The position numbers were made by a program, and so were the translations under genes. From NCBI GenBank assembly GCA_020881835.1, contig CP052876.1, positions 682,001 to 746,000 on the forward strand: a stretch of DNA of 64,000 nucleotides, in the 5' to 3' direction. The notes beneath the pieces were generated by a model. That model searched no databases and was not told the origin of the DNA. It saw nothing but the letters and a program-made list of their open reading frames with translations. How positions within the stretch are numbered: the first letter of the stretch is position 1; the number at the start of each line of letters is the position of its first letter. Shown one piece after another: positions 10,390 to 29,374 of the stretch. Source of the stretch: Kineosporiaceae bacterium SCSIO 59966. Lineage in GTDB: Bacteria; Actinomycetota; Actinomycetes; Actinomycetales; SCSIO-59966.

Positions 10390-10829
10390 GGCAGCTGCTG
10401 TCCCCACGCCAGCTCGCCCTGCTCGCCCCGGCGGCGGTGCTCGTCCTCGGCGTCGCCGTCGCCGCCCTGCTCGAGTGGTGGTGGGTGGCCCTCGTCCTGC
10501 TCGCCGTGCTGCAGGCCGCGGTGCTCGCCGCGATCCTCGTGCTGCGCAACGGCCTGGCGGCTGCGGCCCGGCAGCGCCGGCGCACCGAACGCACCGTGCT
10601 CGCTGCCGTCAAGGCCGCCGAGGACCGGCTCGCCGCCCGCGCCGACGCCCACGCCCGCAGCACCCGCTCCGCGATGGACGCCCTCGAGCGGCGGGTGGCC
10701 GCCGACGAGCGGCAGGAGGTCGTCCAGTCGGTCATCGACCTGCTCGGCGCCGACCGCCTCGACGCCGTCGAGCGGCACGAGGAGCTCCGGTCCCAGCTGC
10801 GCCGGCTGGAGAGTGGGGGCGGGTCCTGA
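10386..10829 (+). CDS. Small two-helix membrane protein with coiled coil
   Basis: 147 residues, family not recognised. After a short basic N-terminus there are two hydrophobic helices (LLAPAAVLVLGVAVAALL and WVALVLLAVLQAAVLAAILV). A long charged helical region with heptad character follows, ending in a block VIDLLGADRLDAVERHEEL. The protein at 28967-29368 has the same plan and nearly the same terminal block (VLDALGAERLDAAARHAEL), so the two are paralogues. The GTG start overlaps the upstream TGA by 4 bp. Placement between transferases suggests a membrane scaffold or chain-length partner of the glycan machinery; that is inference from context only. Confidence 0.85.
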   Translation: MRQLLSPRQLALLAPAAVLVLGVAVAALLEWWWVALVLLAVLQAAVLAAILVLRNGLAAAARQRRRTERTVLAAVKAAEDRLAARADAHARSTRSAMDALERRVAADERQEVVQSVIDLLGADRLDAVERHEELRSQLRRLESGGGS

Positions 10830-12766
10830 ACGACCTGCTCATCCTGCTCGGCACGGACGACGTCGCGGCCGTGCGGGACCTGGCCGGGCTGCCGGTGGAC
10901 CAGTGGCTCCGGCGCGAGCGCGCCGACCTGCTCGCCGCCACCGACGACGCCCTCACCGAAGACCACCGGTGGCTCGTACTCGCGGTCCCGTCGGTCGCCG
11001 AGCTGCGGCGGAGCCTGCCGCTGCTGCGCCGCCTGGGCCGGGTCCGGCGGCTCGTCGTCACCGTCACCGCCACGTCGGTCCCCGAGCTGCTGAGCATCCC
11101 CCCCGCCCTGGCCGGCTCCCTGCTCGGCCGCGGCGACGTCCGGCTGGTTCGCGGCGGAGCCGGCGGGGCCGTGGCAGAGATGCGCAGCCGCACCACCGTC
11201 CCGGTCCACACGCTCGTCCACCTGCTGCTCAGCGGCCCGGGTGAGCGCGGGGTCGGGTCCGCACCCGCGCCGCTGCGGATCGGGGTCACCTCGCCCTCCG
11301 CGCTGCCGTGGGTCGCCGGGACCGCCCGCAGCACGCTGCTCGGAGGCCAGGACGCGGCCCAGGAGCCGGACGGCCCGCCCGCCCTCGACGTCCCTGCCCT
11401 CGACGTCCCCGTCCTCGACGTCGTCGCCGGCGACGCCCCCCGGCCCGGCCTGCCCTGGCTGGACACCCGCGGCACCCCCTCGTGGTCCGCCGCCCCGCCC
11501 ACCTGGCAGGAGATCGCCCTGCACCGCCGCCCGGAGCCGGTGAGCGACCGCTGGCAGCTGCCGCCGGTCGACGCGGCCACGGTGTCCCCGCTGGGATTCC
11601 AGGCCGACCCGGACGGCGCCGCGCTCCGGCTCGTCCGCCGGCGCGCCACCGGCCCGCACGCCTCGCTGGCCGTCGACGCGGCGGGCACCGTCGTCTCCCG
11701 CCTCGACCCGGTCGCCGGGATCGGGGAGGCGGACGTCGACGCGCTGCGGCCCTACACCCACGTCGTCGCGGACGCCGAGGGCGCCGGCGGACCGGTCCAC
11801 CTCGCCGTCATCGTCGCCCACCTGCTCGTCGCCGGCGTCCCGGTCGTGGCCCCCGGCCTGCCCGCCGCGACCCGGCGGCTGCTCGGCCCGGTCGCCCGCC
11901 ACCTGACCACTCTCAGCGACCCCGGCGACCTGCTCGCCCGGGAGGCGTGGTCCGTCACGGTCCGGCGTGAGGCGCTGCAGACCCTCACCGTCGCAGCCGC
12001 CTGGGAGCGGCACGGCCACCGCCTCGGGCTGCCCGCCGCTCGCCCCCCGACCGTCAGCGTGCTCCTGGCCACCCGGCGGCCGGACCGGCTCGGGTGGGCG
12101 CTGCGCCAGGTGGCTGCGCAGACGTGGCCCGAGGTCGAGGTCGTCGTCGTCCTGCACGGGTTCACCCGGCAGCACCCGGACGCCGCGGCGGCGCTGGCCG
12201 TCTTCGACCGCCCGCACGTCGTCCTGGAGGTCGGCGGCGACGTGCTGTTCGGTGACGCGCTGCAGGCCGGCACCGAGCGGTGCTCCGGCCGGTTCGTCTC
12301 GAAGATGGACGACGACGACTGGTACGGCCCGGACCACCTCACCGACCAGGTGCTGGCGATGGGCTACTCCGGGGCGACCGTCGTCGGGGCCAAGGAGTAC
12401 TTCACCTACCTGCAGGGCCGGGACCTCACCGTCCGGCGCCGCAGCACCGGCCGGATCCGGTACACCCAGCGGGTCGCCGGCGGCACCCTGTGCATCCGCC
12501 GGGACGCGCTCGCCGAGGTCGGCGGGTGGGCGCGGGTGCCCCGGGCCGTCGACCGGTTCCTGCTGGCGGCGGTCCGCGCCGCCGGCGGGCTGATCCACTC
12601 GACTCACGGCCTCGGCTACTGCCTGTACCGGGGCACGGACCACACCTGGGCCGCCGCCGACGAGCACTTCCTGCGCAGCGCGACCGACACCTGGTCCGGC
12701 CTGCGGCTGCCGCCGGCGATCCCCACCGGTGCCACGGCGCCGGACTCCACTAGCGTGACGGCCTGA
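10826..12766 (+). CDS. Two-domain protein with C-terminal GT2 glycosyltransferase
   Basis: 646 residues if translation starts at the CTG that overlaps the upstream TGA (CTGA, 10826-10829); no in-frame ATG or GTG is suitably placed. Residues 1-408 are an alpha/beta domain of unknown function. A segment at ~275-385 (GPVHLAVIVAHLLVAGVPVV...RRLLGP) is shared with the protein at 26281-27477. Residues 409-646 are a GT2 domain: VSVLLATRRPDRLGWALRQV, the acidic motif DDDDWYGPDHL (D495-D498), VAGGTLCIRRDALAEVGGW and a C-terminal CLYRGTDHTW. It is predicted to transfer a sugar from a nucleotide donor in the cytoplasm; donor unknown. Confidence 0.82.
   Translation: MNDLLILLGTDDVAAVRDLAGLPVDQWLRRERADLLAATDDALTEDHRWLVLAVPSVAELRRSLPLLRRLGRVRRLVVTVTATSVPELLSIPPALAGSLLGRGDVRLVRGGAGGAVAEMRSRTTVPVHTLVHLLLSGPGERGVGSAPAPLRIGVTSPSALPWVAGTARSTLLGGQDAAQEPDGPPALDVPALDVPVLDVVAGDAPRPGLPWLDTRGTPSWSAAPPTWQEIALHRRPEPVSDRWQLPPVDAATVSPLGFQADPDGAALRLVRRRATGPHASLAVDAAGTVVSRLDPVAGIGEADVDALRPYTHVVADAEGAGGPVHLAVIVAHLLVAGVPVVAPGLPAATRRLLGPVARHLTTLSDPGDLLAREAWSVTVRREALQTLTVAAAWERHGHRLGLPAARPPTVSVLLATRRPDRLGWALRQVAAQTWPEVEVVVVLHGFTRQHPDAAAALAVFDRPHVVLEVGGDVLFGDALQAGTERCSGRFVSKMDDDDWYGPDHLTDQVLAMGYSGATVVGAKEYFTYLQGRDLTVRRRSTGRIRYTQRVAGGTLCIRRDALAEVGGWARVPRAVDRFLLAAVRAAGGLIHSTHGLGYCLYRGTDHTWAAADEHFLRSATDTWSGLRLPPAIPTGATAPDSTSVTA
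12751..12756 (+). promoter_or_regulatory. Internal -10 box before the ExoA-like GT2 gene
   Basis: TAGCGT lies in the last codons of the preceding gene, 11 nt before the ATG at 12768. That ATG is one of the few starts in this series that does not overlap the upstream stop. Confidence 0.45.
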
Positions 12767-12767
12767 T

Positions 12768-14866: not shown

Positions 14867-15393
14867 CGCTGTGGCGCCGGGTGACCGGGCCGGGGTCGCC
14901 GCTGCGGGCGGCCGCCGCCCGGGTCGTCGACCACGTCGTCGTCCCGGTCGCCGGCGGGCCGCCGCCCGGGCTGCGCCGCGGCCGGGACCTGCCGCGCGGC
15001 GGCGGCGGACCGGTGGCGGTCGTCGTCCTCGTCGGGGCGGACCCCGACGTCTGCGACGCCCTGCTGGGGCGGCTGCGCGCCGTCCAGACGGGGCCCGGCG
15101 GCGAGGCGCTGACCCCGGTGGTCGTGGCCGACCCGGCGCTGTGGCCGCGGGTGCGGCAGGCCGGCTACGTCGTCGAGCACCTGCCCGCCGAGCCCGACCG
15201 GCGCCGCCACCAGCTCCTCGAGCTGCGCCGCACCTACGACACCGACACCGTGCTCGTCGTCGCCGGCCCCGCCGCCGTCCAGGCCCTCGACGCCCCGCTG
15301 CTGCTCGGGGCCGTGGCCCCTCGACGTCCCCGCCCCGGCGCCGTCCGGCGGCTCATGCGCCGCCTCGAGGCCCGCTTCGACCCGCACCCCTGA
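14863..15393 (+). CDS. Hypothetical protein, end of the glycosyltransferase series
   Basis: 176 residues, not recognised. It has a basic N-terminus followed by an alternating strand/helix pattern (VAVVVLVGADPDVCDALL, LTPVVVADPALWPRVRQAGY, DTDTVLVVAGPAAVQAL), consistent with one small Rossmann-like domain. There are no membrane segments or known motifs. The GTG at 14863 overlaps the previous stop by 4 bp. Being last in an overlapping series of transferase genes, it may be an accessory subunit; this is only context. Confidence 0.75.
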   Translation: MTLWRRVTGPGSPLRAAAARVVDHVVVPVAGGPPPGLRRGRDLPRGGGGPVAVVVLVGADPDVCDALLGRLRAVQTGPGGEALTPVVVADPALWPRVRQAGYVVEHLPAEPDRRRHQLLELRRTYDTDTVLVVAGPAAVQALDAPLLLGAVAPRRPRPGAVRRLMRRLEARFDPHP

Positions 15394-15396
15394 CCA

Positions 15397-15414
15397 CGTC
15401 GTGCCCGCACGACG
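15397..15414. terminator. Hairpin between convergent genes
   Basis: CGTCGTGC and GCACGACG are perfectly complementary, separated by CC, in the 31-bp gap between the last plus-strand transferase-series gene and the end of rmlA. There is no T-run, so termination on either strand is only suggested. Confidence 0.4.
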
Positions 15415-15424
15415 CGGGGTGGCC

Positions 15425-16300
15425 TCACGGACGGCGGGGGTCGTCGAGGAGCCGCAGCAGGTACTCGCCGTAGCCGCTCTTGCGCAACGGCTCGGCGACC
15501 CGGGCGAGCTGCTCGTCGTCGATCCAGCCCTCACGCCAGGCGATCTCCTCGACGCAGCCGATCTTGAAGCCCTGTCGCGCCTCGATGACCTCGACGAACT
15601 CGGCGGCCTGCATCATCGCCGTGAACGTGCCGGTGTCCAGCCAGGCGGTGCCGCGCTCGAGCACGGTGACCGAGAGCCGGCCGCGCCGCAGGTAGGCGTC
15701 GTTGACCGACGTGATCTCGAGCTCGCCGCGGGCGCTGGGCGTCACGGAGCGGGCGATCTCCACGACGTCGTTGTCGTAGAAGTACAGTCCCGGGACGGCG
15801 AAGTTGCTGCGCGGCCGCTGCGGCTTCTCCTCGATGGAGCGCACCCGGCCGTCGGCGTCGAAGTCGACGACGCCGTAGGCCGTCGGGTTCGCGACGTGGT
15901 AGGCGAAGATGTGACCGCCGTCGACGTCGGTGTTCTGCTTCAGCGCCGTGCCGAGCCCGGTGCCGTGGAAGATGTTGTCCCCCAGGACGAGTGCGACCTT
16001 CTCCGCGCCGATGAAGTCCGCCCCGATGAGGAAGGCCTGGGCCAGCCCCTCGGGCCGCGGCTGGGTGGCGTACTGCAGCTCGATGCCGAGGTCGGAGCCG
16101 TCACCGAGCAGCCGCTGGAAGGAGCTGCTGTCCTCCGGGGTGGTGATGACGAGGACCTCCCGGATGCCGGCCATCATCAACGTCGACAGCGGGTAGTAGA
16201 TCATCGGCTTGTCGTACACCGGCATCAGCTGCTTGCTGACGCCCTTGGTGATCGGGTACAGCCGGGTCCCGGAGCCTCCGGCGAGGATGATGCCGCGCAT
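15425..16300 (-). CDS. rmlA: Glucose-1-phosphate thymidylyltransferase
   Basis: This 291-residue enzyme makes dTDP-glucose from dTTP and glucose-1-phosphate, the first step to dTDP-L-rhamnose. The pyrophosphorylase loop [11 protein letters not shown] is at residues 8-18. [45 protein letters not shown] and TAWLDTGT follow, and [11 protein letters not shown] is near the end; all are typical of RmlA. It is transcribed with rmlC upstream; its own -10 (TAGGCT) starts with the rmlC stop codon. Confidence 0.97.
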
Positions 16301-16308
16301 GGGCGGAC

Positions 16309-16314
16309 AGCCTA
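16309..16314 (-). promoter_or_regulatory. -10 box of rmlA overlapping the rmlC stop codon
   Basis: TAGGCT, 8 nt before the rmlA ATG. Its first three bases (16314-16312) are the TAG stop of rmlC. No Shine-Dalgarno precedes rmlA. Confidence 0.5.
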
Positions 16315-16926
16315 GGGGCGCCCGCCGGAGGCCCGGAGTGCGGCGTAGAGGTCCCGGCACGCCTGCCACGACGGCAGCAGTCCCCGCTCCCGCGCCTCCG
16401 CCAGCGTCGGCGCCTGCGCGTCCTTGGGCGACAGCCGCGGCTCGACGTCGTCCGGCCAGGCGATGCCGAGCGCCGCATCGAGCGCGTTCACCTCGTGCTC
16501 GCGGCCGGGGGAGTACACCGTCGAGCACAGGTAGCTGACCGTCGCGTCGTCCTCGAGGGCGAGGAACGCGTGCCCCAGCCCCTCGGCGACGTACACCGCG
16601 CGCCGCTCGACGGTGTCCAGGCGCACCGCGTCCCACGCCCCGAAGGTGGGCGAGCCGACCCGCAGGTCGACGACGACGTCGAGGACGGCGCCCCGGGTGC
16701 AGGTGACGTACTTGGCCTGGCTCGGCGGGACGTCGGCGTAGTGGATGCCGCGCAGCACCCCGCGCGACGACACCGACGTGTTCGCCTGGGCCAGGTGCAG
16801 CGGGTGGCCGACCGCCTCCGCCAGCGGCTCGAACCGGTACCACTCGAGGAACGTCCCCCGGTCGTCACGGTGCTGGCGTGGGGTGACCTCGAAGGCGTCG
16901 GGGACGGCGAGCTCGCGGATCTGCAC
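16312..16926 (-). CDS. rmlC: dTDP-4-dehydrorhamnose 3,5-epimerase
   Basis: A 204-residue cupin enzyme of dTDP-L-rhamnose synthesis. Motifs: [15 protein letters not shown], the catalytic-His region [27 protein letters not shown], and [33 protein letters not shown], which holds the catalytic Tyr. The GTG at 16926 is chosen because TAGCCT lies 7 nt upstream. The TAG stop is reused in the rmlA -10 box. Confidence 0.96.
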
Positions 16927-16933
16927 GGCGGGC

Positions 16934-16939
16934 AGGCTA
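16934..16939 (-). promoter_or_regulatory. -10 box of rmlC overlapping the upstream stop codon
   Basis: TAGCCT, 7 nt before the rmlC GTG. Its first three bases (16939-16937) are the TAG stop of the GT4 gene, the same arrangement as at rmlC/rmlA. Confidence 0.5.
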
Positions 16940-18058
16940 GCGACGCCGGCGGTGGGCCGCGGCCCAGCCCTGCAGGACGGCGAGGAACCGCCGGGCGTCC
17001 AGCGCCCAGTCCAGGTGCCCCTGCGCGTACCGGCGCCCGGCCGCCCCCAGCCGGAGGCGCCGGTCGGGGTCGGCGACCAGCGCCCGGACGGCGTCCGCGG
17101 CTGCGGCATGGTCCTCGAACGGGACGACGACCCCGGCGCCCGCGGCCTCGACGAGCTCGCGCGAGCTGGGGTTCGGGGTGGTGACGACCGGCAGCCCGTG
17201 CGCCAGGTACTCCATCACCTTCGTCGGCCGCGAGTGGGCGTAGTTCGGCTCGTCGTGCAGCAGCGACAGCCCGGCGGCCGCCCCGTCGAGCAGGGCGAGC
17301 GCCCGGTCGTTCGGGACGAACCCGTGCCAGCGGACCTCACCGCGGTCGGCGGCGGCGCGCACGGCGTCCGCGACGTCCCGGTCGGCGTTGCCGATCATCT
17401 CGACGACGACGTCGGGGGCGAGGCGGCGGCCGACCTCGAGGAGGTCGAGCGCCCCGCGCGCCCGGGTGAGCCGGCCGAGGTAGACCACCCGGTCCTCGCC
17501 CGGCGGGGACGGCTCGCGGGCCGGGACCCGCACCGAGTTCGGCACGACGGGGTGGGCCCGGGTGAACCGGACGGCGTACCCCTCCTCGGCGAGCAGCAGG
17601 TGCACCCGCCGCTCCGCCCACCGCTCCACCGCCCGGACGGCGGCCGCGGTGACCCGGCGCAGGGCCGGCGGCAGCCACCCCTTGAGCCCGAGCGCGGCCG
17701 CGGTGTCCTCGTGCACGTCCCACACCACCGCGGGGCCGTCCCGCCAGCGCCGCCGGCGGCGGCCGGCGACGGCGAGCAGCAGCTCGGGGTCGTGCAGCAG
17801 GACGACGTCAGCGTCGCGCCAGGCGCTCGTCACCAGCCGGCGGGCGGCGGTGAGCGCCCGCAGCCGGCGCCGGCCGACGGCACGCGGCAGGTCGACGCCT
17901 CTGACGCCGGGGGGTGGGGTGCGGCCGTAGCCGGAGAACGGGGCGGCGTAGACGACGTCGTGGCCGGCGTCGAGCAGGGCGGGCAGCTGCCGGTGGCGGA
18001 TCCGCGCGTCCTCCGGGTCGTGGACGACGGTGACGACGAGGACCCGCAGGGCGGTCAC
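16937..18058 (-). CDS. GT4-family glycosyltransferase
   Basis: 373 residues with a GT-B fold. The N-terminal half has RVLVVTVVHDPEDARIRHRQL, VVLLHDPELLLAV and WDVHEDTAAALG. The C-terminal half has VVYLGRLTRARGALDLLEV and the GT4 donor-site motif SRPTKVMEYLAHGLPVVTTPNPSSRELVE. The GTG at 18058 overlaps the end of the exporter ATPase gene by 4 bp, so it is coupled to Wzt/Wzm. Specificity unknown; it probably extends the exported polymer. Confidence 0.92.
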   Translation of the reverse strand: MTALRVLVVTVVHDPEDARIRHRQLPALLDAGHDVVYAAPFSGYGRTPPPGVRGVDLPRAVGRRRLRALTAARRLVTSAWRDADVVLLHDPELLLAVAGRRRRRWRDGPAVVWDVHEDTAAALGLKGWLPPALRRVTAAAVRAVERWAERRVHLLLAEEGYAVRFTRAHPVVPNSVRVPAREPSPPGEDRVVYLGRLTRARGALDLLEVGRRLAPDVVVEMIGNADRDVADAVRAAADRGEVRWHGFVPNDRALALLDGAAAGLSLLHDEPNYAHSRPTKVMEYLAHGLPVVTTPNPSSRELVEAAGAGVVVPFEDHAAAADAVRALVADPDRRLRLGAAGRRYAQGHLDWALDARRFLAVLQGWAAAHRRRR

Positions 18059-18807
18059 GAGGTCACGTGGTTCCAGTACGCGGTCACGACCTCCTCGGTC
18101 GGCCCGTCCATCCGCAGCTCGCCCCGCTCCACCCACAGCGTGCGGTTGCACGTCTCCTTGATGGTGCGCATCGAGTGGCTGACGAGAAAGACGGTCCCCG
18201 CGGCGTCGCGAAGCTCCTTGATCCGCTTCTCGCTGCGCCGCTTGAACGTTGCGTCGCCGACGGCGAGCGCCTCGTCGATGAGCAGCACCCGGTGGGTCAC
18301 GGACGCGGCGATGGCGAACCGCAGCCGGGCGCTCATCCCGGAGGAGTACGTGCGCATCGGCAGGTCCATGAAGTCGCCGAGACCGGCGAAGTCGACGATC
18401 TCGTCGTAGCGGCGGCGGACCTCCTCGGGCGTCATGCCGAGCGCGAGCCCGCCGAGGATGACGTTCCGCTCGCCGGACAGGTCGTTGATGAGGGCGGCGT
18501 TGACGCCGAGCAGCGCCGGGTCGCCGTCGGCGTAGATGGCCCCGCTGGTCGGGACGGTGAGCCCGGCGATGGCGCGCATCAGGGTGCTCTTGCCGGAGCC
18601 GTTCGTGCCGACGACGCCGATCGCGTCGCCCTCGTGGGCGACGAAGGAGATGTTGCGCAGCGCTGGGACGGCGCGCGAGCGGCGCACCGCCGGGCGGCGG
18701 CGCAGCAGCGACCGGCCGTCCTGCTCCCGCTTGCCGGTGGCGAACACCCGGTAGGTGACGCTGACGTCGTCCGCGACGACGGTCGGACGGGGCTCACTCG
18801 CGGCCAT
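18055..18807 (-). CDS. wzt: Polysaccharide ABC exporter, ATP-binding subunit
   Basis: This 250-residue ATPase of a Wzm/Wzt-type exporter moves lipid-linked glycan across the membrane. Walker A GTNGSGKST is at residues 67-75, the signature is YSSGMSARLRFA and Walker B VLLIDEALAVGD, followed by the H-loop LVSHS. It lacks the C-terminal carbohydrate-binding domain of some Wzt proteins, like the teichoic-acid and galactan exporters. The ATG at 18807 overlaps the permease gene by 14 bp. Confidence 0.94.
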   Translation of the reverse strand: MAASEPRPTVVADDVSVTYRVFATGKREQDGRSLLRRRPAVRRSRAVPALRNISFVAHEGDAIGVVGTNGSGKSTLMRAIAGLTVPTSGAIYADGDPALLGVNAALINDLSGERNVILGGLALGMTPEEVRRRYDEIVDFAGLGDFMDLPMRTYSSGMSARLRFAIAASVTHRVLLIDEALAVGDATFKRRSEKRIKELRDAAGTVFLVSHSMRTIKETCNRTLWVERGELRMDGPTEEVVTAYWNHVTS

Positions 18808-19657
18808 AGCGCTCCTCCGCCCGCCAGAAGAACAGGAACCCGGCGACGGCGAGCCCGACCCCCCAGGCGAGACCCACCAGCCAGGACCCTGGGGAGGCCG
18901 GCAGGTCGGTGATGAAGGCGCCACGGACCAGGCTGATGTACACGTACACCGGGTTGGCGGTGAGCACGGTCAGCAGCGGCCCCTCCTCGATGACCCGCTC
19001 GATCGCGTAGAAGATCCCGCTGATGTAGAACATCACCCGGGTGACGAACGGCAGCAGCTGCGCGATGTCCCGGACGTGGACGGTCAGCCGGCCGGTGAGG
19101 AACGCGACGCCGAGGTTGAACATCGCCATGAGTAACAGGGCGGCGGGTACCTGCAGCCACGTCCAGCGCACGGGCTCCCCGGTGGCGACGACGAGGACGG
19201 CGAGCACCACCATCATCGGCCCCAGTGCGTAGGCCCGTTGCAGGACGACCGCGACCGGCAGCAGGGCCCGCGGGAAGTGCAGGGACCGCACGAGCCCGAG
19301 GTTGCCGGTGATCGACTTCGCGCCGTCGCTCAGCGAGGACGAGAAGAACTGGAACACGAAGATCCCGGTGACGAGGAACGGGACGAAGTTGTCCGGCCGG
19401 GTGCTGCTGGGTAGCAGGACCCCGAAGATGAGCCCGTAGACGACCGCGTTGATGAGCGGCCTGATGACCACCCAGGCGATGCCGAGCCGGTCCTGCTCGT
19501 TCTCGGCGCGGAACCGGCTGCGGGACAGCTCGATGGTGAAGTGCCGTCGCCGCCACAGCTGGTGGAGGTACCGACCGAGTGACGGCCGGCCGCCGAGACG
19601 ACGCAGACCGTACCGCTCGACGATGGCGGTCGGGCCCTGCGACTGGTCGTCGGTCAC
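18794..19657 (-). CDS. wzm: Polysaccharide ABC exporter, permease subunit
   Basis: A 287-residue ABC-2-type permease with six predicted helices after an amphipathic N-terminus (HQLWRRRHFTIELSRSRFRAENEQDRLG, then WVVIRPLINAVVYGLIFG). Motifs typical of the Wzm/TagG family include LGLVRSLHFPRALLPV and YISGIFYAIE. The GTG start overlaps the dehydrogenase stop by 4 bp; the 3' end overlaps wzt by 14 bp. It works with Wzt as a heterotetrameric exporter. Confidence 0.94.
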   Translation of the reverse strand: MTDDQSQGPTAIVERYGLRRLGGRPSLGRYLHQLWRRRHFTIELSRSRFRAENEQDRLGIAWVVIRPLINAVVYGLIFGVLLPSSTRPDNFVPFLVTGIFVFQFFSSSLSDGAKSITGNLGLVRSLHFPRALLPVAVVLQRAYALGPMMVVLAVLVVATGEPVRWTWLQVPAALLLMAMFNLGVAFLTGRLTVHVRDIAQLLPFVTRVMFYISGIFYAIERVIEEGPLLTVLTANPVYVYISLVRGAFITDLPASPGSWLVGLAWGVGLAVAGFLFFWRAEERYGRE

Positions 19658-20910
19658 AGACGTTCCACGGCCTCGCTGTCGGCGAGCACGCCTCGGGTGT
19701 CGAGCAGCAGCGGTGCCTCGGCCGCGATCGCCGCGAGGTCGTAGGAGGAGTGCACCTGCAGCAGGATGACGAGGTCGGCGGCTCGCAGCGCCTGCGGCAG
19801 GTCGGGTACCGACTGCAGCGGTTCGCCGGCCGGGTGCCAGGTCGCCACCTTCGGGTCGTGGTAGCTGACCTTCGCGCCGGCGTCGGCGAGCTGCTGGGCG
19901 AGCGGGACGGCGGGCGACTCGCGCTCGTCGGCGATGTCGGCCTTGTACGTCACGCCGAGCAGCAGCACCGAGGACCCGTTGAGCGGCTTGGCCACCGAGT
20001 TCAGCAGGTCCTGGGCGCGGCGGACGACGTACGCCGGCATCGTGTGGTTGATCTCCTGGGCGAGCTCGACGAACCGGAACGGGTAGCCCAGCTTCGCCCG
20101 GACCGTGTAGCTGAGGTAGTTCGGGTCGATGGGGATGCAGTGCCCGCCGACGCCGGGACCGGGGTAGAACGCCTGGAACCCGAACGGCTTGGTCCGGGCG
20201 CAGTCGATGACGTTCCACAGGTCGATGTCGAGCTCGTGGCAGAACCGGGCCATCTCGTTGACCAGGGCGATGTTGACGTGCCGGTAGGTGTTCTCCAGCA
20301 GCTTGGCCATCTCGGCCTCGCGGGTGCCGGCGGCGTGCACCACCTCGTCGCACAGGCGCCCGTAGAAGTCCGCCACCCGCTGGGTGCACGCCGGGGTGAC
20401 CCCGCCGACGACCTTGGGGGTGTTGCGGAACCCGTACGTGGGGTTGCCCGGGTCGATCCGCTCGGGGGAGAACGCGAGGAAGAAGTCCTCGCCGACCCGC
20501 AGGCCGCCGGCCTCCAGCCGCGGACGCAGCAGGTCCTCGGTGGTGCCCGGGTAGGTCGTCGACTCCAGGACGACGAGGGTGCCGGGGGTGAGGTGGGCGG
20601 CGACCGTGTCGGTCGCGCCGAGGACGGCGCCGAGGTCCGGTCCGCCCTCCTCCGACAGCGGGGTCGGGACGCAGATGACGACGACGTCCGCGTCCGCGAT
20701 GACGCCCGGGTCCGTCGTCGCGGAGAACCCGGCGGCCAGCATCGCGGCGATGTCGTCGTCGCTGAGGTCGTCGACGTGGGAGCGGCCCGCGTTGAGCCCC
20801 TCGACCACCCGCGTCGACAGGTCCAGGCCCGTCACCTCGAGCCCGGAGCGAGTGGCCTCCTGGGCCAGCGGCAGCCCGACGTACCCCAGTCCGACCACGA
20901 CCAGCTTCAC
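19654..20910 (-). CDS. UDP-N-acetylhexosamine 6-dehydrogenase (WecC/WbpA type)
   Basis: 418 residues. The N-terminal NAD site is VVGLGYVGLPLAQEA; the middle has LAFSPERIDPGNP and LLENTYRHVNIALVNEMA; the catalytic loop is GPGVGGHCIPIDPNYLSY (active-site Cys); the C-terminal domain begins LLLGVTYKADIADERESPA. The FSPER and GGHCIPIDP forms match enzymes that oxidise UDP-GlcNAc or UDP-ManNAc rather than UDP-glucose. With the epimerase at 352-1548 it could make UDP-ManNAcA. The GTG start has a Shine-Dalgarno (GAGGGAG). It leads the five-gene minus-strand unit running to rmlA. Confidence 0.92.
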   Translation of the reverse strand: MKLVVVGLGYVGLPLAQEATRSGLEVTGLDLSTRVVEGLNAGRSHVDDLSDDDIAAMLAAGFSATTDPGVIADADVVVICVPTPLSEEGGPDLGAVLGATDTVAAHLTPGTLVVLESTTYPGTTEDLLRPRLEAGGLRVGEDFFLAFSPERIDPGNPTYGFRNTPKVVGGVTPACTQRVADFYGRLCDEVVHAAGTREAEMAKLLENTYRHVNIALVNEMARFCHELDIDLWNVIDCARTKPFGFQAFYPGPGVGGHCIPIDPNYLSYTVRAKLGYPFRFVELAQEINHTMPAYVVRRAQDLLNSVAKPLNGSSVLLLGVTYKADIADERESPAVPLAQQLADAGAKVSYHDPKVATWHPAGEPLQSVPDLPQALRAADLVILLQVHSSYDLAAIAAEAPLLLDTRGVLADSEAVERL

Positions 20911-20953
20911 GGTGACTCCCTCGATGCGTGTGCCTGCCCGCCCGGGCCGGACG

Positions 20954-20959: not shown

Positions 20960-20969
20960 CAGGATGCCC

Positions 20970-20975
20970 TAGCCT
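20970..20975 (+). promoter_or_regulatory. -10 box for the giant-transferase pair
   Basis: TAGCCT, followed by a GGGAGG Shine-Dalgarno at 20991-20996 and GTG at 21003. It lies only 10 bp from the oppositely directed TAGCGT, so the two promoters must share or compete for upstream elements. Confidence 0.4.
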
Positions 20976-21002
20976 GGCCCGGACCTGCCCGGGAGGTGCG
21001 CC

Positions 21003-23096
21003 GTGTCGCTGCCGGGGCCCTTGCGCCGGCCCGTCGAGATCCTCGCCTCCGTGGCGTACGTCGCCCGCGCCGGGGTGCTCGACCGGCCCTGGTACGAGCG
21101 GCAGACCGGGCGCCGGTTCGCCAGCGACAGCCTCGCCGCCGCCCACTACGTGCTGCGCGGCCGTCGCCGGGGACTGTCCCCGCACCCGCTGTTCGAGCCG
21201 GAGTGGTACGCCCCGCAGGCGTGGCGTGACGCCGGGGCCGACCCGCTCGCGCAGGCGCTGCGCCGGCGGCGCACCCCGAGCGGCTGGCACCCGCTCCTCG
21301 ACGGCGACGCGTGGGCCGCGGCGCACCCGGACGCCGCCGCGCACCCGTACGGTCCCGCCGCCCACCTGGCCGCCACCGCCGAGCCGGGCACCCGGCTGCC
21401 GACCCCGGAGGACTGGCCCGGGCCCGACCCGACCTGGGGGGAGCTGCGGGCCCGGCTGCTCGCCGCGCTCGACCCGGAGCCGGCGACCGGCGACGTCGAG
21501 GAGGACCAGGCCCTGGCCGCGGCCTCGGACGTCGTGGCCGTCGTCGACTCCGGCGACGAGTGGTGGCCCACGTGGCGGTGCGTCACCGCCCTGCTCGCCG
21601 CCGATACCGGCCGGCGCCTCGACGTCGTCGTGCTCCGGACGCCGCGGGCACGCCGGGCCGTCCGGGTGCTGCTGGCCGCGCTGGAGACCGACCCGCGGGT
21701 GCGGGTGCGCACCCGGGCGCCCGCGCCGGACGGCCGGGTGCGGGTCGACGTCCCCGTCGAGGTCGAGGTCCTCGAGGGGTGGGACCGCTGCCTGCTGCCG
21801 GTCACCGGGGGCCGGGCGGACTCGGCCCAGCCGGTCGCCGTCCGCCGCGACGGGGCGGTCCGCTCCGCCGGCGCCTCCCGCCCTGGCGCCGAGGACCGGG
21901 CCGCCGTCCCGCTGTTCGTCGGCCTGCCGGCCGAGGACGCCCACCGGGCCGGGACCGAGGTGCCCGCCGCCGCCACCCCCGGCGTCCTCGTCCGCCGGCC
22001 CGGCCCGGGCACCATGCCGGCCACCATGCCGGATGCCACGTCGAATGGCGGCCGGCACGTCGTGCGCACCGACGCCGTCGTCCTCGACCACCGCGAGGAC
22101 CTGCCGCCGCACCCGGCCCCCGTGCGCCCCGACCCGCCCCCCGGCGGGCTGCGCTGGGCGGTGCGCACCGCCGTGCCGGCCGGCCGCCGGTCCACCGCCT
22201 GGGGCGACCTGCACTTCGCCCGCGCGCTCGCCGCCGCCCTCGAGCGGCTCGGCCAGCACGCGGTCGTCGACCCGCTCGAGGCCGGCGGCGGCAAGCCCAC
22301 CACCCACCTCGACGACGTGGCCCTCGTGCTGCGCGGGGTCCGCCGGCTGCCGCCGGTGCCGGGCGCCGTCAACGTGCTGTGGGTGATCAGCCACCCCGAG
22401 CTCGTCGCCGACGACGAGCTCGCCGACTTCGACGTCGTCCTGGCCGCCAGCCGCACCTGGGCCGAGGCGACGACGGCCCGTACCGGCGTCGAGGTCCTCC
22501 CGCTGCTGCAGGCCACCGACCCGACCCGGTTCCATCCCGGCGTCGCGCCGCCCGGCAGCGGGGACCCGGTGCTGTTCGTCGGCAACTCCCGCAACGTCGC
22601 CCGGCCGGTCGTCACCGACCTGCTCGCCGCCGGCGTCGACGTCGCCGTCCACGGGTCCCGCTGGGAACGGCTGCTGCCGCCCGGCGTCGTCCGCTCCACC
22701 CACGTGCCGAACGACCGGCTGCCGGCCGCCTACGCCAGCGCCGGCGTCGTGCTCAACGACCACTGGCCGGACATGCGGGCGCAGGGGTTCCTCTCGAACC
22801 GGCTGTTCGATGCCGCCGCCTGCGGCGCCCGCGTCGTCACCGACGACGTGCCGGACGTCGAGGAGCTGTTCGGCGGGCTGGTCCGCACGTTCACCGACCG
22901 GGACGGGCTGGTCCGTCTCGTCACCCGCGCCGCCGAGGAGTTCCCGGACGACGCCGAGCGGGCCCGGCTCGGCGTCCAGGTGGGTCGTCGGCACTCCTTC
23001 GACGCCCGGGCCCGTATCCTGCTCGACGCCGTGACCGCCCGCGGGCGGCTCGCCGCGTCCCCCGACCCCGATGCCGTTCCCGGAGAACACGCGTGA
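21003..23096 (+). CDS. CgeB-like glycosyltransferase with WY-repeat N-terminus
   Basis: 697 residues. The N-terminal ~130 residues carry the repeat seen before many exopolysaccharide transferases (RPWYERQTG...AHYVLRGRRRGLSPHPLFEPEWY). A variable middle follows. Residues ~380-690 are a CgeB-like GT-B domain (WAVRTAVPAGRRSTAWGD, THLDDVALVLRGV, LWVISHPE, DPVLFVGNSRNVARPVV, LNDHWPDMRAQGFLSNRLFDAAACGARVV). The last part is closely similar to the C-terminal third of the next protein, so the pair arose by duplication. The start is a GTG with a GGGAGG Shine-Dalgarno 6 nt upstream. Confidence 0.88.
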   Translation: MSLPGPLRRPVEILASVAYVARAGVLDRPWYERQTGRRFASDSLAAAHYVLRGRRRGLSPHPLFEPEWYAPQAWRDAGADPLAQALRRRRTPSGWHPLLDGDAWAAAHPDAAAHPYGPAAHLAATAEPGTRLPTPEDWPGPDPTWGELRARLLAALDPEPATGDVEEDQALAAASDVVAVVDSGDEWWPTWRCVTALLAADTGRRLDVVVLRTPRARRAVRVLLAALETDPRVRVRTRAPAPDGRVRVDVPVEVEVLEGWDRCLLPVTGGRADSAQPVAVRRDGAVRSAGASRPGAEDRAAVPLFVGLPAEDAHRAGTEVPAAATPGVLVRRPGPGTMPATMPDATSNGGRHVVRTDAVVLDHREDLPPHPAPVRPDPPPGGLRWAVRTAVPAGRRSTAWGDLHFARALAAALERLGQHAVVDPLEAGGGKPTTHLDDVALVLRGVRRLPPVPGAVNVLWVISHPELVADDELADFDVVLAASRTWAEATTARTGVEVLPLLQATDPTRFHPGVAPPGSGDPVLFVGNSRNVARPVVTDLLAAGVDVAVHGSRWERLLPPGVVRSTHVPNDRLPAAYASAGVVLNDHWPDMRAQGFLSNRLFDAAACGARVVTDDVPDVEELFGGLVRTFTDRDGLVRLVTRAAEEFPDDAERARLGVQVGRRHSFDARARILLDAVTARGRLAASPDPDAVPGEHA

Positions 23097-26000
23097 AGCA
23101 GCTCGCCCGCAAGGTCCTTCGCCGGGTGCGTCGGACGGCACCCGTGACGGCGGCCGTGGCCGCCGTGCGGCCCCGCCGGGCTGCGGCCGCGATCCGCGCC
23201 AGCGGGCTGTTCGACGAGGCGTGGTACCGCGAGCAGCTCGACGAGGAGCTCCCCGCAGGCACCGACCTGGTCGCCCACTACCTGCGCCACGGTGCGGCCG
23301 CCGGCCTGTCACCCCACCCGGCGTTCGTGCCCAGCTGGTACCTCGCCGAGCACCCGGCGCTGCGACGTGACGGTGTGGACCCGTTCTCGCACTACGTCCT
23401 GCGCGGCGCCCGCCGCGGTGACTCGCCGCACCCGCTGTTCGACGCCAAGCGCTACCTCAAGCGCCACCCGGCGGCCCGCGAGCACCCGGGAGGCCCGCTC
23501 GGGCACTACCTCGACACCGGGTGGCGTGAGGGCGCCGAGCCCCACGAGCTGTTCGACTCCGCGCAGTACCGGGCCGCGCACCCCGGCCTGGACTCCCCGC
23601 CGTTCCTGGACTGGGCCCGGCGCACCGCCCGGGTGTTCCGCGCCAACCGGGGATGGGCGGACTTCCCACGCACGGTCGGCTCGTTCGACGCGGCCGCCCA
23701 CGCCGAGGAGCGCGCCGCGGCCGTCCGGGAGCTGCGGGCCACCGGTCGCCGTCCGCTGGTCACCGTCGTCGTCCCGACCAAGGACCGCTCGGCGAGCGTG
23801 CTCGAGGCGGTCCGCTCGGTGCAGGCGCAGACGTACGACGCCTGGCAGCTCGTCGTCGTCGACGACGGGTCCACCGACGACACCGAGGAGGTGCTCGCAC
23901 CGGTCGTCGCGGCCGACGACCGGATCGAGTACCTGCGCCGACCCCGACCCGGCGGGGTGGCCGCCGCCCGCAACGCCGGGCTGGCCCGGGCCCGCGGGGA
24001 GTACGTGGCCTACCTCGACTCCGACAACACCTGGACCCCCGAGTTCCTCGAGACGGCCGTCGCCTACGCGGTCACCCGGCGGGCCCGTGTCGTCTACGGC
24101 GTCTCGGAGCTGCGCGAGTCCCCGGGTGGCCAGAACCGGGTCGCCTACCGCGGCGGGGTCGGACCGTTCAACGCCGAGGCGCTGCGCGAACGGAACTACA
24201 TCGACTGCATCGTCCTCGTCCACGAACGGTCCCTGCTCGACGAGGTCGGCGGCTTCGACGAGTCCCTGCGCCGGATGGTCGACTGGGACCTGTTCATCCG
24301 GATGTCGTTCGTCACCGAGTTCGTCCCGGTCCCGGTCGTCGCCACCGTGTACGACCCGTGGGAGGACCGCGACGACCGGATCACGGTCAGTGAGCCGTGG
24401 GGCTTCCGGTTCGTGATCAAGTCGAAGTACTACCTGGACTGGCCGGCCGCCGAGCGCGCGGTGCCGGACCGCATCCCCGGCCTCACCTCGGTCGTCATTC
24501 ACGTGCGCGGCGACGTCCCTGCCCTCGTCCGGGAGCTGCAGCGGCTCTACGCGGTCACCGACCACCCGTTCGAGGTGCTCCTCGTCGACACCGGTCGGGA
24601 CGAGGGCGACGCCGTGCACCTGCAGCTGCTGCCGGACCGGTTCGAGAACCTGCGCGTCCTGCGCTACCCCGAGCCGTTGTCCCTCGAGGTCGCCACGAAC
24701 CTCGGCATCGCGCAGTCCCGCGGCGAGTACGTCGTCGCGATGGTGGACGGCACGTGGGTGGACGAGGGCTGGCTCGAGCCGCTGGTCGCCCCGCTGGCGT
24801 CGCGGTCGGCGGCGATGGTGCAGCCCCGGGTGCTCACCGCCGCCGGCGTGGTCTGGAGCGTCGGGCTGGTGTTCTCCCGCCGCGGGCTGCCGCACCACGT
24901 CTTCCGCGGCCTGCCCGGCGACGGGCCCGAGGTCGCTCAGGACCAGGAGCGGGCCGCGCTCGCCCCGGTCGTCCTGGCGGCCCGGGCCGACGACCTCGTC
25001 GCCGTGCACGGCCTGGACCCGTTGCTCGTCAACGACCTCGACTCCGGGGACCTGTCCCTGCGGCTCGCCCGGCACACCGGGCGGCCGCTGCGCTACGCGG
25101 CGGCCAGCGTCGTCGCCGTCCCACCGACGCTGGCCCGCGCCAAGGGCGCGGCGGCCACGGCCCAGGCGCGCGACAACCGGGCGATCTTCCTCGACCGCTG
25201 GGCCGGTGAGCTGCCCCAGGACGACGTCGAGGTCTGGGGCGCGGCCGGCCTGCAGATCGTCGGCTACCAGAACGACCAGACCGTCGAGGCCTCGGACGCG
25301 AACACGTCGATGTTCGAGCCCATCGTGGTCCGGCACCGCGACCGTCCCCTGCGCTGGGCGATCAAGACCGGCGTGCCGACGCTCGGCCGGCGGCAGAGCT
25401 GGGGGGACTGGCACTTCGCGCTCGCGCTCAAGGAGAGCCTCGAGCGGCTCGGCCAGGAGGTCGTCCTGGACTGCAAGAAGGCCTGGCACCGCCCGAGCAG
25501 CCACCTCGACGACGTCGCGCTCGTGCTGCGCGGCGTCTCGGACTACGCGGTGAACCCGCAGCAGACCAACATCATGTGGATGATCAGCCACCCGGAGCGG
25601 GTGACCCCGCGGGAGGCCGCCACCTACGACGCGGTGTTCGCCGCCTCGATCTCCTTCGCCGAGCGCTTCACCGCCCGGCACGGGATCGCGGTCGAGCCGC
25701 TGCTGCAGTGCACCGACCCGGGGCGCTTCCACCCGGTCGAGCCGGACCCGGTGCGCCGCCACCGGCTGCTGTTCGTCGGCAACGCCCGCGGGGTCCGACC
25801 GGCCGTGCGCGCCGCGCTGGACGCCGGGCTCGTCCCGGACGTGTACGGCGTCCGGTGGGAGGGGCTGCTGCCGGACGGCGCGTGGCAAGGCCGGTACATC
25901 CCCAACGAGGAGCTCCCCGCGGTGTACGTCGCGGCCGGGGCGGTCCTCAACGACCACTGGGAGGACATGCAGCGCGAGGGGTTCCTGTCCAACCGCCTGT

Positions 26001-26263
26001 TCGACCTCGCCGCGTGCGGTGCCCGGGTCGTCAGCGACGAGGTCGACGGTCTGCACGACGTCTTCGGTGACGTCGTGCGCACCTTCGCCACCCCGCAGGA
26101 CCTCGCCGACGCGGTGCACGCCCACTGGTCGGAGACGCCCGAGCAGGCCGAGCGCCGCATGGCGCTGTCCGAGACGGTCCGGGCCGAGCACAGCTTCGAC
26201 GCCCGGGCCAGGACCCTGCTCGAGACCGTGCAGCGGGTGCGTGCCGCCGGCCCGAGGGCCTGA
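23093..26263 (+). CDS. Three-domain glycosyltransferase (GT2-GT2-CgeB)
   Basis: 1056 residues. The WY-repeat region (~35-180) has the pattern AHYLRHGAAAGLSPHPAF repeated about three times. GT2 domain A starts near 220 (VTVVVPTKDRSASVLEAV, DDGSTDDTEEV, YLDSDNTWTPEF, GGFDESLRRMVDWDLF). GT2-like domain B is at ~463-690 (LRYPEPLSLEVATNLGIAQ, VVAMVDGTWVDEGWLEPL). A CgeB-like domain is at ~750-1056 (HFALALKESLERLGQE, LNDHWEDMQREGFLSNRLFD). The GTG overlaps the previous stop by 4 bp. It could add two or three residues of a repeat unit in sequence; specificities unknown. Confidence 0.9.
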   Translation: MKQLARKVLRRVRRTAPVTAAVAAVRPRRAAAAIRASGLFDEAWYREQLDEELPAGTDLVAHYLRHGAAAGLSPHPAFVPSWYLAEHPALRRDGVDPFSHYVLRGARRGDSPHPLFDAKRYLKRHPAAREHPGGPLGHYLDTGWREGAEPHELFDSAQYRAAHPGLDSPPFLDWARRTARVFRANRGWADFPRTVGSFDAAAHAEERAAAVRELRATGRRPLVTVVVPTKDRSASVLEAVRSVQAQTYDAWQLVVVDDGSTDDTEEVLAPVVAADDRIEYLRRPRPGGVAAARNAGLARARGEYVAYLDSDNTWTPEFLETAVAYAVTRRARVVYGVSELRESPGGQNRVAYRGGVGPFNAEALRERNYIDCIVLVHERSLLDEVGGFDESLRRMVDWDLFIRMSFVTEFVPVPVVATVYDPWEDRDDRITVSEPWGFRFVIKSKYYLDWPAAERAVPDRIPGLTSVVIHVRGDVPALVRELQRLYAVTDHPFEVLLVDTGRDEGDAVHLQLLPDRFENLRVLRYPEPLSLEVATNLGIAQSRGEYVVAMVDGTWVDEGWLEPLVAPLASRSAAMVQPRVLTAAGVVWSVGLVFSRRGLPHHVFRGLPGDGPEVAQDQERAALAPVVLAARADDLVAVHGLDPLLVNDLDSGDLSLRLARHTGRPLRYAAASVVAVPPTLARAKGAAATAQARDNRAIFLDRWAGELPQDDVEVWGAAGLQIVGYQNDQTVEASDANTSMFEPIVVRHRDRPLRWAIKTGVPTLGRRQSWGDWHFALALKESLERLGQEVVLDCKKAWHRPSSHLDDVALVLRGVSDYAVNPQQTNIMWMISHPERVTPREAATYDAVFAASISFAERFTARHGIAVEPLLQCTDPGRFHPVEPDPVRRHRLLFVGNARGVRPAVRAALDAGLVPDVYGVRWEGLLPDGAWQGRYIPNEELPAVYVAAGAVLNDHWEDMQREGFLSNRLFDLAACGARVVSDEVDGLHDVFGDVVRTFATPQDLADAVHAHWSETPEQAERRMALSETVRAEHSFDARARTLLETVQRVRAAGPRA

Positions 26264-26280
26264 CCGCCCGAGCCGCGAGT

Positions 26281-27477
26281 TCAGCAGCCGACGTCGAACC
26301 AGGACCGGGCAGTCGCCGCCCTGCCGGGCGACCAGGGCAGGTCCGCGCCCCAGTCCCGGAACGCCGCCGGCGTCCTCGCCCACTGCGCCGCAGCGACCCT
26401 CAGCAGGTCGTCGCGCTCGGCCGGCGCCGCGACCCCGACGACCCCCAGGTCGTGCAGCAGGCGGCCGTCCACCTCGTCCCCGCGGACCAGGGCCGCGACG
26501 ACGTCCGGGTCGACGTCCCGCCGGACCGCCCAGGACGGGGACCGCACGCCCGGCCCGGTGCCGTCCGGCGGGCGCCGGACCCACACGTCGAGGCCGGGTA
26601 GGTGGACGAGCGTCGGACGCACCCCGACGACGTCGGCGGGGCCGACGGTCAGCTCGAGGGCCGCGTCGAGGACGTGGAACGGCCCGTAGCAGAGGTCTCC
26701 GCCGGCGTGCACGACGACGTCGTGGTGGCGCGGGACGAGGTCGTGGCTGGCAGGGCGGTCCACCCGGACGACGTCCGGCGGCGCCCACCCGGAGGGCCAC
26801 GACTGCCGGACCAGGACGGCGTCGCCCGTCACGACGACCCGGACGGCGGGGGGCTGGCGGACCTGGCGGAGCAGCGCGGCGCGGCGGGCCCGCACGGCCA
26901 CGTCCCGGCGGGTCAGCGGGTCGGCGGTGTGCCCGACGTGTGTGCCGGCGACCACGTCGGCGAGGTCCGCGCCCACCAGCCGCCGGACGACGAGGGGCAG
27001 CGGGCCGGTCACCGCCGGCACCCCGGCCAGCGCGAGGGCCTGCAGGACGCGGGCGTACTCGACGGGCCCGCGGGTGGCGGCCAGGGGCAGGCGCAGGTGC
27101 CGCACACCGCGCAGCGCGGCGAGCTGGGCCCGGGTCGGGGCGTCGCCGGTCAGCTGGGCGACCACGGCGCCGGTGGCGTCGTCGAGGACCACCAGGTCAC
27201 CGTCCGGGTCGCCGTCCGCGTCGCCGCTGCCCCGCCGGGTCGCGGTGACGGCCGGAGCCGGCGACCCGAGGCCGGCGGCCTCGTCGTCCCAGGGACCGGG
27301 TGGCTCGGCTGCCAGGTCCAGGGCCACCGGGGCGGTGTCCGGCAGCGTCCGCACGGCGGTCGCCAGCTCCTCGGCCGACGCCGAGGCGGCCCACCGCCAG
27401 GTGGGGTCGGACGGGCCGCCGGCGCCGTCCGCGCCATCCCGTAGGGTGCCGCCGACACCGGTGCCGTCGTCGGTCAC
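26281..27477 (-). CDS. GT2-like paralogue without the acidic motif
   Basis: 398 residues, not a family I recognise by name. Reading it against the protein at 10826-12766 shows the same layout. Residues 94-205 match that protein's ~275-385 segment (GPVEYARVLQALALAGVPAV...RRLVGA). Residues ~255-302 match its GT2 core, but DDDDWYGPDHL is replaced by GGDLCYGPFHV, followed by ADVVG and LPGLDVWVRR in register. It is therefore probably a non-catalytic or altered-specificity relative. It starts with GTG at 27477, is divergent from the GT2 gene at 27552 and convergent with the giant transferase. It may be a regulatory partner. Confidence 0.78.
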   Translation of the reverse strand: MTDDGTGVGGTLRDGADGAGGPSDPTWRWAASASAEELATAVRTLPDTAPVALDLAAEPPGPWDDEAAGLGSPAPAVTATRRGSGDADGDPDGDLVVLDDATGAVVAQLTGDAPTRAQLAALRGVRHLRLPLAATRGPVEYARVLQALALAGVPAVTGPLPLVVRRLVGADLADVVAGTHVGHTADPLTRRDVAVRARRAALLRQVRQPPAVRVVVTGDAVLVRQSWPSGWAPPDVVRVDRPASHDLVPRHHDVVVHAGGDLCYGPFHVLDAALELTVGPADVVGVRPTLVHLPGLDVWVRRPPDGTGPGVRSPSWAVRRDVDPDVVAALVRGDEVDGRLLHDLGVVGVAAPAERDDLLRVAAAQWARTPAAFRDWGADLPWSPGRAATARSWFDVGC

Positions 27478-29368: not shown

Positions 29369-29374
29369 GCGGCG

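What the first reader, a model, noticed from the sequence alone, without database searches (positions are those of the whole stretch)
10826..27477. A GT2-like family with one acidic-motif member and two members lacking the motif in the same locus
Seen directly: the protein at 10826-12766 has DDDDWYGPDHL in its GT2 core. The protein at 26281-27477 has GGDLCYGPFHV at the matching place, with ADVVG and LPGLDVWVRR in register, and shares a GPV...AGVPAV...RRL segment before it. The C-terminal half of the protein at 5513-7282 has [11 protein letters not shown] followed by ADLVGK. So one member keeps the acidic residues and two have lost them. Inference: the two may be non-catalytic partners that regulate or scaffold the active one, or they may use a different chemistry. 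I know of no description of this family.
Basis: partly seen in the sequence, partly recalled or inferred. Interest (0 to 1): 0.65.

Follow-up and report, generated by a model that had tools for sequence, protein, structure and literature searches.

The report
Conserved dead glycosyltransferase beside working ones
In a bacterial gene cluster that builds and exports a surface sugar polymer, one sugar-adding enzyme has relatives that have lost the residues needed for the reaction, and one of these looks like a protein kept on purpose as a non-working partner.

Summary
All three motif strings are present; the 26281-27477 protein is on the minus strand. P0001 (10826-12766) is a working-type GT2. 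The GT2 half of P0002 (5513-7282) and P0003 (26281-27477) are true relatives without the acidic motif (profile E 2.3e-37; 2.2e-16).

The two motif-less members are different things. P0002 belongs to a sister clade of GT-B + GT2 proteins: 37 of 39 full-length members keep DDD and 39 of 39 keep the GT-B R-R...E motif. P0002 therefore probably still works through its GT-B half and has lost only the GT2 half.

P0003 belongs to a DDD-less subfamily without Pfam match, found in 13 of 22 genomes of a family in another order. In all 7 neighbourhoods fetched it lies between the same two glycosyltransferase genes, in the same relative orientation. Eight of its orthologues show purifying selection (median dN/dS 0.34, 28 pairs). 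So it is hardly a decaying gene. The best reading is a conserved non-catalytic partner of its neighbours P0004 and/or P0005. No interaction was tested; the step it serves is unknown.

The parts
5513..7282 (+). P0002, 589 aa: GT-B domain (PF13524) with intact R-R...E motif, plus C-terminal GT2 domain without catalytic residues
6629..7279 (+). pseudo-GT2 half of P0002 (aa 373-589); [11 protein letters not shown] at 6887-6919 where orthologues have DDDD-YGP-YL
7099..10389 (+). polysaccharide pyruvyl transferase + GT-B (PF13524) fusion; real start probably near 7280
10826..12766 (+). P0001, 646 aa: N-terminal half of uncertain fold, C-terminal working-type GT2 (about aa 406-625); start codon uncertain
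12308..12340 (+). DDDDWYGPDHL motif of P0001
12768..13790 (+). ordinary GT2
15425..16843 (-). ORF with nucleotidyltransferase domain (PF00483, aa 184-418); real gene shorter
16937..18151 (-). GT4-type glycosyltransferase beside the ABC transporter genes
18055..18924 (-). ABC transporter ATPase
18794..20389 (-). ORF whose C-terminal part is an ABC-2 type permease (PF01061, aa 302-492); real gene shorter
19654..20910 (-). UDP-glucose/GDP-mannose dehydrogenase family protein
21311..26263 (+). P0005 ORF: GT2 (two stretches) + GT-B (PF13524); left-hand conserved neighbour of P0003; coding start probably near 23 kb
26281..27477 (-). P0003, 398 aa: DDD-less relative of P0001-type proteins, member of a conserved subfamily; GGDLCYGPFHV; start uncertain
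27300..28997 (+). P0004 ('GT2c') ORF: GT2 with DAD motif; right-hand conserved neighbour of P0003; real start downstream of 27300
28756..30411 (+). ORF with NAD-dependent epimerase/dehydratase domain (aa 226-530); real gene shorter

Best explanation
The window holds a locus for an ABC-exported surface glycan. It contains two related kinds of two-part glycosyltransferase. Clade A (P0002 type) is GT-B + GT2. Clade B (P0001 type) is an N-terminal region that may descend from a GT-B half, plus GT2. P0001 is the working GT2 of this family here. P0002 keeps a working-type GT-B domain but its GT2 half is a catalytically dead remnant that still keeps some positions of the family. P0003 belongs to a clade-B subfamily that cannot do the usual metal-dependent GT2 catalysis and is maintained by selection. 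In the window and in all 7 neighbourhoods fetched it is encoded between a P0005-like GT2-GT-B protein and a P0004-like GT2 protein. Most likely it acts as a non-catalytic subunit of one of these neighbours, for example by stabilising it, binding acceptor or positioning it. Shown: homology, loss of the residues, conservation, synteny, selection on orthologues. Inferred: loss of activity. Proposed only: the partner role.
For: P0003 profile match 2.2e-16; match to one P0003-type (P3-type) protein 2e-20 over aa 62-346. Class search: 32 of 394 genomes, its own included, at E<=1e-3. Of the 19 best loci fetched, 18 were aligned: 12 lack DDDD and 6 carry it. P3-type in 13 of 22 genomes of family f38: 12 of 12 of genus g144, 1 of 2 of g164, 0 of 8 of the other four genera. 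P0005-like / P3-type / P0004-like order and relative orientation in 7 of 7 fetched neighbourhoods (of the 13 genomes), the same as in the window. Of 11 coding sequences none has an internal stop, 8 are exactly 389 aa, one 390, two 435 and 440. dN/dS in frame: median 0.34, range 0.15-0.47, 28 pairs of the 8 equal-length ones; changes by codon position 1505/1206/3060. With the more distant L170 and L175 pairs reach 0.65. Tree: P0003 with P3-types, SH-aLRT 92, inside clade B. P0002: GT-B R-R...E in 39 of 39 and DDD in 37 of 39 clade-A members. P0001 GT2 fold: VIA Z about 20 to solved GT2 enzymes. 89 of 111 clade-B genes in the 77 named loci are followed by a P0004-like gene.
Against: No interaction, expression or activity data. 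The P0003 model is poor (pLDDT 65.2), has no Foldseek match at E<=0.001, and its best VIA Z is 5.0, below the level that the tool calls informative. P0003 itself is known from one genome in its order. Its identity to P3-types is only 29-34% while the flanking proteins are 52-61%, so it evolves faster than its neighbours, and its place in the tree rests on 41% of the columns and long branches. In single pairs the dN/dS of the GT2-like part reaches 0.81. An antisense frame (rc1) also gives dN/dS below 1 (median 0.46), as can happen when third positions line up, which weakens the contrast. Selection was measured on f38 orthologues, not on P0003. GT-B ancestry of the P0001 N-terminal half is not significant (hhalign probability 3.9 to 25.9%). 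In 2 of 7 neighbourhoods no DDDD clade-B gene was found in the fetched stretch.
Confidence: 0.6

Rival explanations
1. Split of labour between two-part transferases, as in EXT1-EXT2: ancestral clade-A proteins carry out two additions with GT-B and GT2. In this genome P0002 supplies the GT-B step and P0001 the GT2 step, perhaps as one complex; P0003 is a further, fully dead relative.
For: Reciprocal pattern: GT-B motif kept and DDD lost in P0002; DDD kept and GT-B glutamate mostly absent in P0001-type (E in 2 of the 40 clade-B members that align there; 83 of 123 have no residue aligned). Arthrobacter loci L086 and L087 hold an ABC transporter, a clade-A gene with DDDD, a UGD-like gene and a clade-B gene together. 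In EXT1-EXT2 the GT-B domain of EXT2 is a pseudo-domain while the GT-A domains are active (PMC9675754, passages read).
Against: At least 13 of 297 genomes of the order hold a clade-B gene (matches placed by the tree) against 60 of 297 with a P0002 match, some of these by GT-B alone; most of the latter show no clade-B gene among the scored matches. Where both occur, clade A keeps DDDD in L086, L087 and G270. GT-B ancestry of the P0001 N-terminal half is weak. No EXT entry is among the top 50 VIA rows of P0001, and those of P0003 have Z about 4. Analogy, not homology.
Confidence: 0.2
2. P0003-type proteins are not partners but acceptor- or glycan-binding proteins (lectin-like), or do a metal-independent reaction.
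For: The subfamily is conserved and constrained without the metal motif, and keeps its own conserved segments.
Against: No conserved acidic residue at the motif columns; the segment before the motif is shortened too.
Confidence: 0.15
3. P0003 and the GT2 half of P0002 are decaying leftovers with no function.
For: Redundancy: the motif changes seen in clade-A or clade-A-like proteins (P0002; L053 in G148; the 754-aa L081 protein in G034; the DPRD/DARD/DGQD group in Streptosporangiaceae) lie in loci with another DDD-bearing member; for the Streptosporangiaceae group this is by construction, since those loci were collected through a DDD member. Selection on the P0002 half could not be tested: no close relative is held.
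Against: For P0003-type: 13 genomes, fixed neighbours, near-constant length, dN/dS well below 1. For P0002: open frame and 127.8-bit match to the live domain.
Confidence: 0.05

Closest known systems
Glycosyltransferase family 2, Pfam PF00535 / GT-A fold (e.g. PDB 6p61, WrtF 9om*, heparosan synthase 2, GlfT2)
   Same: P0001 GT2 domain: Pfam 1.5e-09; Foldseek best 2.2e-11 and VIA Z about 20 for 6p61, WrtF and heparosan synthase 2; DDD, a later Asp and a His as in metal-dependent GT2 enzymes (roles recalled)
   Different: P0002 lacks DDD, the later Asp and the His; P0003 lacks them except for Asp aligned at the D497 and D576 positions; P0003 and five orthologues scanned have no credible Pfam match
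PF13524 Glyco_trans_1_2 (GT-B; CgeB-like, name recalled)
   Same: P0002 aa 221-362, 6.3e-23
   Different: Here fused to a GT2 domain that lacks DDD in the window and has it in 37 of 39 full-length members
EXT1-EXT2 heparan sulfate polymerase
   Same: GT-B + GT-A two-domain proteins, one partner with a pseudo GT-B domain (PMC9675754, passages)
   Different: Animal GT47/GT64 enzymes; no sequence relation tested or expected; here the dead domains are GT2, and a complex is not shown
GtfA-GtfB of serine-rich-repeat protein glycosylation
   Different: Different conserved domain (DUF1975), protein substrate, Gram-positive cocci and lactobacilli; relation to P0003 not tested

Membership tests
GT2 enzyme (GT-A), P0001 | PF00535 above cut-off, DDD motif, GT-A fold | tested here: met
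   38.5 bits against cut-off 23.3; DDDD; VIA Z about 20. Catalysis itself not tested.
GT2 enzyme (GT-A), P0002 C-terminal half | DDD motif and other invariant residues | tested here: not met
   SAGH at the motif; K493, G552, D576, R602, H606, W608 lost, although homologous at 2.3e-37
GT2 enzyme (GT-A), P0003 | DDD motif, segment before it, His/Trp motif | tested here: not met
   Residues changed or gapped at these positions, with Asp aligned only at D497 and D576; no Pfam match
GT2 enzyme (GT-A), P0003 | GT-A fold | tested here: inconclusive
   Model pLDDT 65.2; VIA Z 5.0 to 6p61 over aa 208-351; Foldseek none at E<=0.001
Clade B (P0001-type) protein family, P0003 | Colinear linker + GT2 sequence, placement in clade B | tested here: met
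   Profile 2.2e-16; trees: clade B with SH-aLRT 95, P0003 with P3-types 92 inside it; long branch, so the exact place is unsure
P0003-type (DDD-less) subfamily | No DDD, between P0005-like and P0004-like genes, purifying selection | tested here: met
   selection measured on 8 orthologues of f38, not on P0003 itself
GT-B glycosyltransferase (PF13524), P0002 N-terminal half | Pfam match and R-R...E motif | tested here: met
   81.8 bits, cut-off 25; motif kept as in 39 of 39
GT-B ancestry of the P0001 N-terminal half | Significant similarity to GT-B | tested here: inconclusive
   hhalign probability 3.9-25.9%, five column shuffles lower; fold of this half not searched alone
EXT1-EXT2-like co-polymerase | Physical complex making an alternating polymer | not testable with these tools
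   No co-folding or activity assay available

The most novel reading that the evidence does not exclude
Actinobacterial surface-glycan loci use dedicated dead glycosyltransferases. P0003-type proteins are an obligate non-catalytic subunit family, without a Pfam model, that assembles the P0004/P0005 transferases. P0001 and P0002 together form a split GT-B/GT2 co-polymerase in which each chain carries one live and one dead domain, a bacterial counterpart in design to EXT1-EXT2.
Probability: 0.25. Interest if true: 0.75.

Novelty: new variant of a known kind. Interest (0 to 1): 0.55.

Why it matters
Dead enzyme relatives are easily dismissed as noise in annotation. Here a motif-less glycosyltransferase relative is conserved in position and sequence in genomes of another order, so it very likely has a function without the known chemistry. 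That gives a small, testable system for what non-catalytic glycosyltransferases do in bacteria, and flags a family for which the Pfam scan gives no hit.

Tried and rejected
Tried without result or dropped. P0003 in its own order: 8 of 396 genomes at E<=0.01, its own included; of the others L008, L010 and L014 are DDDD members, and the remaining short matches were not examined. With alignment A4: 3 of 297, its own included; the other two places are the DDDD clade-B genes of G065 and G101 (compare). P0003 in its own family: only its own genome is held. NCBIfam: no family above its cut-off for the eight proteins scanned, none at all at E<=0.1 for P0003. PDB by sequence: none for P0002; five GT2 entries for alignment A1. 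Foldseek with the P0003 model: nothing at E<=0.001. P0003 against the clade-A GT2 profile: not significant (E 1.7). Second domain of P0004 as another pseudo-GT2: not significant (hhalign probability 0.5-3.6%), dropped. P0002 C-terminal half derived from the P0004 second domain: rejected (4.8 bits against 127.8). I first read P0003 as a decaying copy of the short DDDD proteins seen in Streptosporangiaceae and in G017; the class search overturned that.

Biases. The clade-A profile includes P0002 and L053. L145 and L080 in the tally of 181 are probably misaligned domains. Of the 19 loci fetched, L179 was not in the alignment, whose printed output was also cut (the motif block was shown). Model A4 contains sequence upstream of the likely starts, hence the stops reported in some rows; G467 is split over two contigs. 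Only 7 of the 13 P3-type neighbourhoods were fetched. Trees are quick searches with SH-aLRT only.

Literature: eight searches of open-licence PMC papers, with lists cut at the best rows; no listed title describes this family. Papers seen: PMC9675754, PMC10570366 and PMC6973325 as passages; all others as search listings.
Full report
What was checked. The three motif strings are where the finding puts them, with the correction that 26281-27477 is read from the minus strand and that the start of the 10826 protein is uncertain (CTG at 10826, in-frame GTG at 10475). I call the proteins P0001 (10826-12766), P0002 (5513-7282) and P0003 (26281-27477). Pfam gives GT2 for P0001, GT-B (PF13524) plus a sub-threshold GT2 for P0002 and nothing for P0003.

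Homology is real. P0003 is found by a profile seeded on P0001 and built without it at 2.2e-16 among 10,133 ORFs. The C-terminal half of P0002 matches a profile of 28 DDD-bearing orthologues, itself left out, at 2.3e-37. Profile-profile comparison of the two GT2 regions gives probability 100 (the P0002-side profile there includes P0002).

Surroundings. The locus holds a pyruvyl transferase fused to GT-B, a further GT2 and a nucleotidyltransferase, a GT4-type transferase, an ABC ATPase and ABC-2 permease, a UDP-glucose-dehydrogenase-type protein, a GT2-GT-B protein P0005 and a GT2 protein P0004. Such content is typical of loci for ABC-exported surface polysaccharides (established knowledge; the glycan itself is unknown).

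Two clades, separate losses. A tree of 115 family sequences separates P0002-type (clade A, 53 rows, support 84) from P0001-type with P0003 (clade B, 61 rows, support 95). Of 29 P0002 orthologues from the same order, 28 carry the acidic motif; the exception is L053 of genome G148. Over all 39 full-length clade-A members the GT-B R-R...E motif is kept in 39 and DDD in 37, the two exceptions being P0002 and L053. Both also lost H444, K493, G552, D576, R602, H606 and W608 (P0002 R418 as well), while keeping Q432, G445, G488, D507 and G521. A related group in Streptosporangiaceae carries DPRD, DARD or DGQD instead (8, 2 and 1 of 181 members). So P0002 is best read as a GT-B enzyme with a dead GT2 half. 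In clade B, 122 of 123 members carry DDD, a figure inflated by the way the loci were collected; P0003 scores too low to be counted there.

P0003 is not a relic. I first took it for a decayed copy of a short DDDD protein, because 89 of 111 clade-B genes are followed by a P0004-like gene and P0003 sits beside P0004. A search of 394 genomes of the class then found matches in 32, its own included. Of the 19 best loci, 18 were aligned: 12 lack DDDD in the same way as P0003 and 6 are ordinary DDDD members. The 12 come from one family, f38, in another order. There the P3-type occurs in 13 of 22 genomes, 12 of 12 in genus g144. In 7 of 7 neighbourhoods fetched it lies between a P0005-like gene and a P0004-like gene (52-61% identical to the window's proteins), convergent with the first and divergent from the second, as in the window. 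Eleven coding sequences have no internal stop; eight are exactly 389 aa, the others 390, 435 and 440. For these eight, dN/dS is 0.15-0.47, median 0.34 over 28 pairs, against medians of 1.42 and 2.13 in the shifted frames and 1.32, 0.46 and 2.02 on the other strand; changes by codon position are 1505, 1206 and 3060 overall and 705, 611 and 1577 in the GT2-like part. With the two longer, more distant sequences pairs reach 0.65, and 0.81 for the GT2-like part alone. P0003 groups with these orthologues (SH-aLRT 92, long branches) and matches one at 2e-20 over aa 62-346. None of five P3-type proteins scanned has a credible Pfam match.

Structure. The model of P0001 is good (pLDDT 81.5, pTM 0.86) and its GT2 part is a plain GT-A fold. 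The model of P0003 is poor (pLDDT 65.2). Its linker is confident, its GT2-like core is not; Foldseek finds nothing at E<=0.001 and VIA gives at best Z 5.0, to a GT2 over aa 208-351, with the C-terminal part of the GT-B enzyme PimA at 4.8 for aa 62-202. These are too weak to prove a fold. That the N-terminal region of P0001 descends from a GT-B domain is suggested, not shown.

How it most likely works. Shown: relatives without catalytic residues, one of them in a conserved, syntenic subfamily whose members are under constraint. Inferred from established GT2 knowledge: without DDD and the His these domains do not transfer sugar by the usual metal-dependent route (P0003 has Asp aligned at D497 and D576; the f38 members have no acidic residue at the motif). 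Proposed: P0003 is a non-catalytic subunit of P0004 or P0005, the genes beside it in every neighbourhood seen. Precedents for helper or pseudo glycosyltransferase domains exist: GtfB (PMC6973325, passages) and the pseudo GT-B domain of EXT2 (PMC9675754, passages). A further, less certain idea is that P0001 and P0002 divide between them the two activities that one clade-A protein may have elsewhere.

Known or new. Non-catalytic glycosyltransferase relatives are a known kind. This subfamily, its fixed place between two transferases and its lack of a Pfam match are, as far as the eight literature searches and the Pfam and NCBIfam scans reach, not described. I rate it a new variant of a known kind, interest 0.55.

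Noticed in passing
L090, L091, L092, L093, L098, L103, L108, L110, L117, L123, L161 (record titles of Streptosporangiaceae), e.g. L092:17043-18914 -: Eleven clade-A-like proteins with DPRD (8), DARD (2) or DGQD (1) instead of DDDD, each in a locus that was collected through a DDD clade-B member: another group with an altered metal motif.
   Followed up: partly
window 27300-28997 + (P0004) and its relatives: P0004-like proteins have a second C-terminal domain without acidic residues at a conserved PxGW-like segment in the 14 sequences shown. Kinship of that domain to GT2 was not significant.
   Followed up: partly
G148 (L078:12807-14753 -) and G034 (L081:9198-11462 -): Two further clade-A or clade-A-like proteins without intact DDD (LPGC, DELG), each in a locus with another DDD-bearing member.
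   Followed up: partly
window 7099-10389 +: Pyruvyl transferase (CsaB-like, 149 bits, below the NCBIfam cut-off of 213.1) fused to a GT-B domain.
   Followed up: no
window 50676-52892 -: MASE1-GGDEF-EAL protein (cyclic di-GMP turnover) in the same window.
   Followed up: no
genome G512 (5,585,780 bases, one contig): The size recalls Jiangella gansuensis, so family f38 may be Jiangellaceae; recalled, not verified by any search.
   Followed up: no
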